Positions 162 to 1,530 of a stretch of 64,000 nucleotides of DNA are shown here, piece after piece. The stretch spans positions 11,976,223-12,040,222 of the forward strand of contig NC_057866.1 in the NCBI RefSeq assembly GCF_019393635.1, given 5' to 3'. The notes under the pieces are model-generated. The model was not told the origin of the DNA and made no database searches. It saw only the letters and a list, made by a program, of their open reading frames with translations. Source of the DNA: Dromiciops gliroides (lineage: Eukaryota > Chordata > Mammalia > Microbiotheria > Microbiotheriidae). The stretch's first letter is position 1. Every line of letters starts with the position of its first letter. The translations under genes were made by a program, and so were the position numbers.

Positions 162-1004
162 ATGCTTTTAAGGCCAAAGCTTATGGATGGGCGTCCTCTA
201 GCATATACACCTTTTGAGCACTTACAAATTGATTATATTACTATGCCAAAAGCAGGACATTATAAATTTTGCCTTGTTATAGTTGATCAGCTCACTCGGT
301 GGGTGGAGGCCTTTCCCAGCCCCCGAGCCACAGCTGCCTTTGTTGCCAAAATTCTTCTTAAAGAGATAGTACCTCGTTTTGGCCCACCAGCCCGCATCGA
401 TTCTGACAAAGGCACACATTTCACTGATTCGATTTTATCCCAAATCTACTCTTTCTTGGGAGTGACTCCAAAATTCCACACGCCCTACCATCCACAAAGT
501 TCAGGCCAAGTCGAACGTATGAATAAAGAGCTTAAGAGTATGATTGGCAAATTATGTACTGAAACCCATTTGAAATGGCCTGATGTTCTACCATTGGCAT
601 TATTCTATCTACGAAGTAGACCAAGAGGAGAACTTCATATATCTCCTTATGAAATGCTTTTTGGTCACCCTCCTATCCAAGCTAAAACTTTTTCCCCAGT
701 TTATACATCACTGGTGGGAGGTGATACTTCTGTTGCTTCCTATATACAGGAATTACAGACCAGGCTACGTGAACTCCATGAGGCAGGAGCTGTGGTCCAG
801 GCAGGACCATTAGACTTTTCATTGCATAACTTCAACCCAGGAGATAAAATATATGTAAAGAATTTTCAGAGAACCAGTGGAACTCAACCTGCCTGGGAAG
901 GACCTTTTCAGGTATTATTGACAACTCCTACTGCCATTAAAATTGGTGAAAAAAGACTCATGGATTCATTGCTCTCATATAAAGCCTGCACCATTCATAG
1001 GTGA
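162..1004 (+). CDS. pol (integrase part): ERV integrase (core and C-terminal domains)
   Basis: This 280-codon open frame holds a retroviral integrase core. An acidic triad of the D,D-35-E kind is visible in the contexts LQIDYI, RIDSDKGTHF and SGQVERMNKE, followed by the conserved ALFYLRS and SPYEMLFG blocks. A C-terminal module with the AWEGPFQVL (GPF/Y-like) motif comes near the end. Integrases insert viral DNA into host chromosomes. The first Met may not be the real start, because integrase is normally released from a Pol precursor whose upstream part lies outside the window. Its last 62 bases overlap the OTU frame in another reading frame, as pol and env overlap in gammaretroviruses. Confidence 0.85.
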   Translation: MLLRPKLMDGRPLAYTPFEHLQIDYITMPKAGHYKFCLVIVDQLTRWVEAFPSPRATAAFVAKILLKEIVPRFGPPARIDSDKGTHFTDSILSQIYSFLGVTPKFHTPYHPQSSGQVERMNKELKSMIGKLCTETHLKWPDVLPLALFYLRSRPRGELHISPYEMLFGHPPIQAKTFSPVYTSLVGGDTSVASYIQELQTRLRELHEAGAVVQAGPLDFSLHNFNPGDKIYVKNFQRTSGTQPAWEGPFQVLLTTPTAIKIGEKRLMDSLLSYKACTIHR

Positions 1005-1530
1005 AGAGATTTCAGATAGACCTGAGGTAGACGCTAAAGAGGTAAAAACCCTAACGATAGCAACTGTTAAAGAGCAAAGAGAGTTCAGAGGAAACAGGCA
1101 GTTCCCATTTGATAATCCCACTGATCAGTTAAATGCTTTGGGACTCAGTCTTCGTAAAGTATCAGGAGACGGAAATTGCCTTTTTAGGGCTTTAGCAGAC
1201 CAGCTAGAAGGTCACTGTAGAAATCATCTCAGACACAGACAAGAAGCTGCTTCTTATATGATTAACCATAGACAAGAGTTTGAGTCTTTTAGAGTAAATG
1301 ACTCCCCTTTTGAAGAATATGTTGATGAATTAAAGAAATTTGGAAAGTGGGGAGGAAATGATACAATTGTAGCATTTGCTAAGCAGCATCAGCTGAATGT
1401 TGTGGTTCATCAATTAAATCAGCCTTTATTGAAAATCAGTGGCACAGACAAAACTGATGCTACAGAACTCCACATTTTCTACCATAAAGAACATTATGAT
1501 AGCATTAGAAAAATTAACGACATACTATAA
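943..1530 (+). CDS. OTUD3-like OTU cysteine protease domain in env position of an ERV
   Basis: This 195-codon open frame has an N-terminal stretch of about 60 residues that I do not recognise. It is followed by a complete OTU domain (about residues 62-193). The OTU Asp-Gly-Asn-Cys catalytic motif is present in SGDGNCLFRAL, and the matching His in KEHYDSIRKIND. Blocks QLEGHCRNHLRHRQE and AIVAF-like VAFAKQHQLNVVVHQLN are very close to what I recall of human OTUD3. OTU enzymes cleave ubiquitin chains. The frame begins inside the integrase frame and ends at a clean stop, exactly where gammaretroviral env would lie, so it reads as a host gene captured by the retrovirus. The alternative is an OTUD3 retrocopy that landed there by chance; the long open N-terminal extension overlapping pol argues against that. 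Confidence 0.82.
   Translation: MVKKDSWIHCSHIKPAPFIGEEISDRPEVDAKEVKTLTIATVKEQREFRGNRQFPFDNPTDQLNALGLSLRKVSGDGNCLFRALADQLEGHCRNHLRHRQEAASYMINHRQEFESFRVNDSPFEEYVDELKKFGKWGGNDTIVAFAKQHQLNVVVHQLNQPLLKISGTDKTDATELHIFYHKEHYDSIRKINDIL

What the first reader, a model, noticed from the sequence alone, without database searches (positions are those of the whole stretch)
943..1530. A retrovirus-captured OTUD3-like deubiquitinase in the env position
An open frame overlapping the end of an ERV integrase carries a full OTU domain with its Asp-Gly-Asn-Cys motif and catalytic His, very similar to cellular OTUD3. Pol-env style overlap, a unique N-terminal extension and an open frame in otherwise decayed DNA suggest that the ERV lineage carried this enzyme, possibly to counter ubiquitin- or ISG15-based host defence. 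An alternative is a host-domesticated locus. I know of OTU domains in some Gypsy-type retrotransposons but not of an OTUD3-like one in a class I marsupial ERV.
Basis: partly seen in the sequence, partly recalled or inferred. Interest (0 to 1): 0.88.

Follow-up and report, generated by a model that had tools for sequence, protein, structure and literature searches.

The report
Marsupial retroelement polymerase carrying captured deubiquitinase
A large, recently active family of retrovirus-like elements in this marsupial genome carries, fused to the end of its polymerase, an enzyme domain taken from the host ubiquitin-removing enzyme OTUD3, and the sequence shows that selection has kept it.

Summary
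The OTU frame is real and close to human OTUD3 (2e-53; 86 of 134 residues), but it is not an env-position gene. The integrase domain ends in the OTU frame; the apparent pol-env overlap is a frameshift inside the integrase of this damaged copy. The genome holds a large family: 150 of 150 scored candidates matched, out of 2776, and 74 of those 150 lie in one 1392-residue frame (my count). Nineteen of the 74 were fetched: gag, a single TGA, then pol ending in OTU, LTR pairs 0-1.1% diverged in substitutions, 17 of 18 with 4-bp target duplications, no env found. OTU shows purifying selection between old and young subfamilies (dN/dS 0.15-0.20; Fisher 5.6e-9 or less in 14 comparisons) and among the young copies. 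It runs across two intron positions of host OTUD3, so it came from spliced RNA. Best reading: a host deubiquitinase captured once, tethered to integrase and kept as a working enzyme; activity and substrate are inferred. The window copy is a recent, rearranged, truncated insert.

The parts
2..214 (+). end of the integrase zinc-binding domain (Integrase_H2C2), pol fragment; pol continues upstream of the window
   Evidence: 1.8e-08; upstream context in L009
105..1001 (+). integrase catalytic core (rve) and most of the C-terminal domain (MLVIN_C)
   Evidence: retroviral integrases; MLV integrase CTD 2m9u, 2.9e-07
949..990 (+). last part of the integrase C-terminal domain, read in the OTU frame (MLVIN_C profile positions 41-54)
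   Evidence: E 0.022 against 24736 models; continues the profile where the other frame leaves it
991..1119 (+). integrase tail and linker, variable between copies
   Evidence: (9 nonsynonymous, 3 synonymous variants in the linker of 19 copies)
1120..1521 (+). OTU deubiquitinase domain of OTUD3 type, in frame with the integrase end
   Evidence: family
1522..1522 (+). last base of the insert; the 19 fetched complete copies run on for 28 more residues (NSET...) before their stop
1523..1526 (+). TACT, right copy of the 4-bp target duplication (left copy lies upstream of the window)
1523..1625 (+). host flank: fragment of an older L3/CR1-like repeat (name recalled); supplies the stop codon 1528-1530; right end approximate
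   Evidence: 83% to window 61101-61175
24192..24496 (-). solo LTR fragment related to the LTR of this family (78.6% to the L010 LTR)
11254..11553 (+). 3' end of another LTR element (7754-11926), related to the 3' untranslated end of this family (78-80%)

Best explanation
This is the truncated end of the Pol protein of a class I (gammaretrovirus-like), env-less endogenous retroelement family. The family took the catalytic domain of the host deubiquitinase OTUD3 from a spliced messenger and fused it in frame to the C-terminus of integrase. Shown: gene order gag-TGA-PR-RT-RH-IN-OTU, many copies, LTR pairs with few or no substitutions, purifying selection on OTU, retained catalytic residues, capture across intron positions. 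Inferred: readthrough of the gag TGA makes a small amount of Gag-Pol-OTU, which is packed with integrase into the intracellular particle, and the enzyme there removes ubiquitin chains (K6/K63 preference by homology with OTUD3). My most likely target is the integrase/reverse-transcription complex itself, protected in cis from ubiquitin-dependent removal (about 45%). Next comes removal of K63 chains from RIG-I/MDA5/MAVS (about 35%), then something else (about 20%).
For: Frame: MLVIN_C split over the two frames in register; a 1392-aa frame around OTU in 74 of 150 scored loci (my count; these are the best matches to the window copy), ending in OTU in the 19 of those that were fetched. Domains of one copy searched in pieces: Gag_p30, RVP, RVT_1, RNase_H, rve, MLVIN_C, OTU. 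Family: 150 of 150 scored of 2776 candidates match, 146 without a stop inside the match. Recent activity: substitutions between LTRs K2P 0-0.0107, median 0.002, 4 of 19 pairs with none; 4-bp target duplications in 17 of 18. Selection: pN/pS of OTU 0.18, IN 0.18, PR-RT 0.175, RT-RH 0.23; OTU variants 8 synonymous to 4 nonsynonymous where neutrality expects 2.7 nonsynonymous per synonymous, P 0.0046, while linker (3S:9N) and tail (4S:6N) fit neutrality; old versus young OTU dN/dS 0.15-0.20 at dS about 1 (9 old copies against one young), Fisher 5.6e-9 or smaller in 14 of 14 comparisons. Residues over 40 ERV OTUs: Cys76 40, His 40, Lys129 40, Asp73 39. Origin: no intron at the host positions before VASL and at PLWQ|IRGT. 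The cis reading rests on convergence: Ginger1 transposases carry OTU or Ulp1 behind an integrase (PMC2836005, passages). The sensing reading rests on OTUD3 acting on K63 chains of MAVS, RIG-I and MDA5 and depending on Lys129 acetylation (PMC10566363, passages).
Against: No enzyme assay, RNA or protein data. The structure model of the window protein failed (mean pLDDT 32.6). The 19 fetched copies were all chosen because one search listed a 1392-aa frame for them, so their intact pol is by choice; several are near-identical, and OTU has only 12 variants. In 8 of 19 the two LTRs differ by 17-71 bases in length, which the substitution measure ignores. The 20 older loci are the best matches to human OTUD3, which favours slowly changing ones; among the older copies themselves dN/dS is higher and scattered (OTU 0.18-1.52, IN 0.18-1.73), as decay after insertion would give. 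All copies were found through OTU, so OTU-less relatives could not appear. One residue (Tyr in human OTUD3) close before the catalytic His is deleted in 40 of 40 ERV copies, which could alter activity. OTU changes 1.5 to 3 times faster in dN than integrase in 8 of 9 old-young comparisons (the reverse in L029), so constraint is weaker than on integrase.
Confidence: 0.82

Rival explanations
1. The OTU is a separate gene in the env position, made from its own spliced messenger.
For: It lies after the integrase and no env was found after it; env-replacing captures are known (nectin3 in crocodilian ERVs, PMC4299795 passages).
Against: OTU shares one 1392-aa frame with integrase in 74 of 150 scored loci (my count; 19 of them fetched); the integrase domain end is in the OTU frame; no ATG before the catalytic Cys in the window frame.
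Confidence: 0.06
2. A host-domesticated locus: one ERV copy and an OTUD3 copy turned into a cellular gene.
For: The OTU frame of the window is open.
Against: Many dispersed, nearly identical copies; the window copy is a recent, frame-broken insert in an old repeat without an ATG before the Cys.
Confidence: 0.01
3. Chance neighbourhood: an ordinary OTUD3 retrocopy beside an ERV.
For: OTUD3 similarity without introns.
Against: The adjacency recurs: 7 of 7 young and 18 of 20 older loci have integrase close by, in the OTU frame in 7 and 13 of them; a one-residue deletion is shared by 40 of 40; a tail of one kind is seen in the 19 fetched copies and, where it is readable, in older ones.
Confidence: 0.005
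4. The OTU is a passenger: captured once and dragged along by a successful element, with no function.
For: Rapid expansion spreads any passenger; the linker and tail fit neutrality; OTU is less constrained than integrase between subfamilies.
Against: Purifying selection on the domain at two time depths and conserved catalytic residues.
Confidence: 0.06
5. OTU acts as an extra protease on the viral polyprotein rather than on ubiquitin.
For: Some viral OTU domains do both (TYMV, start of abstract seen).
Against: A retroviral protease domain is present (RVP), and OTUD3 is described as a deubiquitinase.
Confidence: 0.05

Closest known systems
Human and host OTUD3 (OTUD subfamily deubiquitinase)
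   Same: OTU domain with Asp-Gly-Asn-Cys and His-Tyr-Asp-Ser, Lys129 position; mean identity to human 70% (20 older copies) and 65% (19 young)
   Different: frame ends 28 residues after the OTU domain, so no UBA half; one residue fewer near the catalytic His; fused to integrase; no intron at the two host positions read
Ginger1 DNA transposases (PMC2836005, passages)
   Same: integrase with a C-terminal OTU domain
   Different: Ginger1 is a DNA transposon with terminal inverted repeats; this family has LTRs, gag, PR, RT, RNase H and an MLV-type integrase
Adintoviruses (PMC11071296, passages)
   Same: an OTU-like domain and a retrovirus-like integrase in one genome
   Different: DNA viruses; the OTU-like domain is N-terminal in the B-family DNA polymerase, not behind the integrase
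Host-gene captures in crocodilian ERVs: KIT ligand, nectin3 (PMC4299795, passages)
   Same: host mRNA captured by an ERV, intact frames, purifying selection reported, nectin3 at the cost of env
   Different: those encode a ligand and an adhesion protein; here a host enzyme domain is fused in frame to Pol
Dasyurid ERV clades MEBrv 3 and MEGrv 1-3 (PMC11334065; abstract, section 7 and passages)
   Same: MEBrv 3: env-less, highly amplified; MEGrv 1-3: class I pol, similar lengths (MEGrv 2: 8.5 kb, LTR 486)
   Different: MEBrv 3 is class II; MEGrv clades are listed with env; 'OTU' and 'ubiquitin' have 0 occurrences in the main text. Sequences were not compared, so identity with one of them (MEGrv 2 above all) is not excluded

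Membership tests
Class I (gamma-like) ERV | gamma-type gag, protease, RT, RNase H and integrase with MLV-type C-terminal domain | tested here: met
   (one copy, in pieces): Gag_p30 1.9e-20, RVP, RVT_1, RNase_H, rve, MLVIN_C 3.1e-09; no RT tree was made
Class I (gamma-like) ERV | gag and pol in one frame separated by a single stop | tested here: met
   TGA before pol in 19 of 19 fetched copies; gag frame of 464-503 aa in 8 of the 9 complete copies listed, broken in the ninth
Class I (gamma-like) ERV | LTR pair and 4-bp target duplication | tested here: met
   19 of 19 fetched; 17 of 18, 1 undetermined
Class I (gamma-like) ERV | env gene | tested here: not met
   no Pfam family in the one ORF tested, one copy; no CX6CC motif after OTU in 11 copies; a loose immunosuppressive-domain-like pattern only on the opposite strand in 2 of 11
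OTUD3 | OTU domain closest to OTUD3 with Cys/Asp/His | tested here: met
   closest among solved structures only, the large protein database was off
OTUD3 | UBA domain in the C-terminal half | tested here: not met
   frame ends 28 residues after the OTU domain in 19 of 19 fetched copies
OTUD3 | deubiquitinase activity, K6/K63 preference | not testable with these tools
   needs an assay; preference from PMC10566363 passages
Ginger1 | DNA transposon with terminal inverted repeats and no reverse transcriptase | tested here: not met
   LTRs, RT and RNase H present

The most novel reading that the evidence does not exclude
A retrovirus-derived element that has jumped very recently, and perhaps still does, in a living marsupial encodes its own working deubiquitinase, welded to its integrase. 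It is the first retroviral Pol known to me with such an enzyme, used to shield the integration complex or to silence K63-ubiquitin antiviral signalling, and may be a reason for the family's success in this genome.
Probability: 0.5. Interest if true: 0.92.

Novelty: new variant of a known kind. Interest (0 to 1): 0.86.

Why it matters
If true, a mammalian retroelement gained a new enzymatic domain in Pol from a host gene and kept it under selection through a deep radiation. It parallels the integrase-OTU fusions of Ginger1 DNA transposons, which suggests that tethering a deubiquitinase to an integrase pays repeatedly. It makes the question 'what does ubiquitin do to retroviral integrase and intracellular particles' testable with a natural enzyme, and offers an arms-race case, since OTUD3 itself is reported to act on MAVS, RIG-I and cGAS.

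Tried and rejected
Env-position gene: rejected by the split MLVIN_C match and the 1392-aa frames. Programmed frameshift in the window copy: rejected, since the intact copies have no frame change there. Retrocopy with poly-A: rejected. A neutral-decay simulation from the window sequence suggested early that the divergence from OTUD3 is too large for a neutral open frame; its ancestor was a stand-in. The trees rooted with OTUD5 are not trusted for rooting: the OTUD5 branch is very long, and human OTUD3 even falls among the older ERV copies with low support. The unrooted split of host plus human OTUD3 from the ERV copies has support 100 in 27 distinct rows and 69 columns. Of 5 positions in two host exons where host and human OTUD3 differ, the 20 older copies show the host letter in 17, 0, 11, 14 and 6 rows, and the 19 young in 0, 0, 19, 0 and 0: weak support for a marsupial source. 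AlphaFold2 without an alignment failed. Viral contigs: no match. Papers: 9 of 10 searches listed no paper whose title, abstract start or read passages report an OTU domain in an ERV; most listed papers were seen as listings only, and the library lacks most subscription journals.

Full report
What is there. The window begins inside a pol gene. Integrase domains (H2C2, rve, MLVIN_C) are read in two frames up to position 1001, and an OTU domain in a third at 922-1530. The OTU domain matches human OTUD3 (4bou) at 2e-53, 86 of 134 residues identical. Read alone this looks like a gene overlapping the end of pol. But the MLV-type integrase C-terminal profile is split: positions 1-39 match in the integrase frame and positions 41-54, weakly, in the OTU frame. 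The integrase therefore ends in the OTU frame, and OTU should be an in-frame extension of Pol. The first ATG of the OTU frame (residue 113) comes after the catalytic Cys (residue 86).

The family. A search of the window's own genome (3.3 Gb, 17 contigs) bore this out. Of 2776 first-look candidates 150 were scored and 150 matched, the window copy included. By my count of the printed table 146 have no stop inside the match and 74 lie in an open frame of 1392 residues. With the human domain as query 2315 candidates were found and again 150 of 150 scored matched; the 20 best, fetched as older copies, are 68-73% identical to human OTUD3. Besides the context of the window copy I fetched 19 copies, all chosen because one search listed a 1392-residue frame for them, so their intact pol is by choice. 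All 19 have an LTR pair and a TGA followed in the same frame by the 1392-residue pol that ends in OTU and a 28-residue tail. The gag frame before the TGA is 464-503 residues in 8 of the 9 whose frames were listed, and broken in the ninth. In one copy, searched in pieces, Pfam gives Gag_p30, RVP, RVT_1, RNase_H, rve, MLVIN_C and OTU, and nothing for an ORF downstream. After OTU come 1.1-1.8 kb before the 3' LTR in the 9 copies measured. This stretch is A+T-rich in the 3 copies measured (GC 0.33) and partly homologous between subfamilies; no CX6CC motif was found in 11 copies, and a loose immunosuppressive-domain-like pattern matched only on the opposite strand in 2 of them. So the family is gag-pol-OTU, and no env was found.

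Age. Substitutions between LTRs give K2P 0 to 0.0107, median 0.002; four of 19 pairs have none. In 8 of 19 pairs the two LTRs differ in length by 17-71 bases, which this measure ignores. At an assumed 2.2e-9 per site and year (recalled, not measured here) the median is about 0.45 and the maximum about 2.4 million years. Target duplications of 4 bp are present in 17 of 18 copies whose ends could be set. The primer site TGGCGACCCCGAAGGGAC (most copies) resembles the arginine tRNA type (recalled).

The window copy. It is not a complete provirus. A 181-bp inverted piece of the LTR end is followed by 4.05 kb from near the start of pol to the end of the OTU domain, 99.63% identical to L010, with 11 substitutions and 4 gaps; its pol is read in several frames. 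The insert starts with TG, ends with CA, and is flanked by TACT on both sides within an older repeat that also occurs at 60991-61175. The OTU frame ends in the flank, and the reported stop belongs to host DNA. The open OTU frame of this copy says nothing about function; the evidence for function is in the family.

Origin. The host OTUD3 gene lies on C3 near 614.30 Mb (located with a recalled human probe). Two of its OTU exons were read: VASLAKAG...PLWQ, followed by GTAAGT, and IRGTDKAN...HLQTD, between a CAG acceptor and GTGAGC. The ERV domain runs through both intron positions (before VASL, and PLWQ|IRGT) without interruption, so the capture went through spliced RNA. Similarity to OTUD3 continues to about NSE-PA-L and then stops inside that exon. 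All 40 ERV OTUs compared, the window copy included, lack the same residue near the catalytic His. Integrase lies next to OTU in 7 of 7 young and 18 of 20 older loci, its end in the OTU frame in 7 and 13 of them (three of the 7 are also among the 19). This points to a single capture. Host and human OTUD3 are 63 of 68 identical over these exons and group with support 100 apart from the ERV copies. Of the 5 positions where they differ, older copies carry the host letter in 17, 0, 11, 14 and 6 of 20 rows, which weakly favours a marsupial source.

Selection. Among the 19 young copies OTU pN/pS is 0.18, like integrase (0.18) and PR-RT (0.175), RT-RH 0.23; OTU with its linker and tail gives 0.43. Counted as variants: OTU 8 synonymous and 4 nonsynonymous, P 0.0046 against neutrality; linker 3 and 9; tail 4 and 6. 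Between nine older copies and one young copy OTU has dN/dS 0.15-0.20 with dS 0.96-1.22; integrase has 0.08-0.14, with dS 0.43-0.91 apart from the saturated L029. In 14 of 14 comparisons the deficit of nonsynonymous change is significant (5.6e-9 or smaller); they are not independent, since all use one young copy. Among the older copies themselves the ratios are higher and scattered (OTU 0.18-1.52, integrase 0.18-1.73), as expected of copies that decayed after insertion. Cys76 and Lys129 are kept in 40 of 40, the His in 40 of 40, Asp73 in 39 of 40.

Function. Deubiquitinase activity is inferred from homology and constraint. Being part of Pol, OTU should be made at low level by readthrough of the gag TGA and travel with integrase. 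Two uses fit. (a) In cis: removing ubiquitin from integrase or the reverse-transcription complex. The independent integrase-OTU and integrase-Ulp1 fusions of Ginger1 transposons (PMC2836005, passages) argue for this. (b) In trans: OTUD3 removes K63 chains from MAVS, RIG-I and MDA5 and depends on Lys129 acetylation (PMC10566363, passages), and that lysine is kept. I put (a) at about 45%, (b) at 35%, other at 20%.

Known or new. ERV capture of host genes is known (KIT ligand, nectin3; PMC4299795 passages); integrase-OTU proteins are known in Ginger1, and adintoviruses have an OTU-like domain on another protein beside an integrase (PMC11071296 passages). The study of dasyurid ERVs (PMC11334065; abstract, section 7 and passages) describes an env-less class II clade and three class I clades with env and does not mention OTU or ubiquitin in its main text. 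I did not compare sequences, so this family may be one of its clades under another description. Nine paper searches listed no OTU domain in an ERV (Tried and rejected). To my knowledge no retrovirus with a deubiquitinase has been described (recalled).

Limits. One genome, sequence only, no assay; copies were found through OTU, so relatives without it were not seen; the structure model failed.

The 1392-aa count was raised from 73 to 74, the choice of the 19 copies, LTR length differences, old-old ratios, the frame count in older loci, the position of the first ATG and the start of the window insert were corrected or added, and one more paper was looked at.

Noticed in passing
window 7754-11926: A second LTR element with terminal repeats 91-92% alike over their main blocks (7754-8102 and 11555-11901), a further related LTR-like block from 8132, and no long coding region noticed; its 3' end (11254-11553) is 78-80% identical to the 3' untranslated end of the OTU family, so it may be a non-autonomous relative.
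   Followed up: partly
window 24192-24496 (-): Fragment of a solo LTR 78.6% identical to the LTR of copy L010.
   Followed up: partly
L009 5111-9345 (genome C6 11973510-11977744): The window copy is an odd integration product: inverted LTR end at one side, internal pol end at the other, yet TG...CA ends and a 4-bp target duplication, as if integrase had inserted a rearranged cDNA.
   Followed up: partly
L029 1453-1980: OTU copy closest to human OTUD3 (73%), with an integrase only 53% identical to the window's; it may represent an early branch of the family.
   Followed up: partly
19 fetched copies, gag-pol junction: The gag stop is TGA in 19 of 19, followed by CGG or TGG; MLV uses TAG (recalled), and UGA-CGG is a leaky context elsewhere (recalled).
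   Followed up: no
8 of 19 fetched LTR pairs: The 5' and 3' LTR of one copy differ in length by 17-71 bases although they have few substitutions; exchange between copies or repeat-length change are possible reasons.
   Followed up: no
window 26245-26586: Tandem pair of a SINE-like unit of 167 bp; the same SINE type occurs many times across the window.
   Followed up: no
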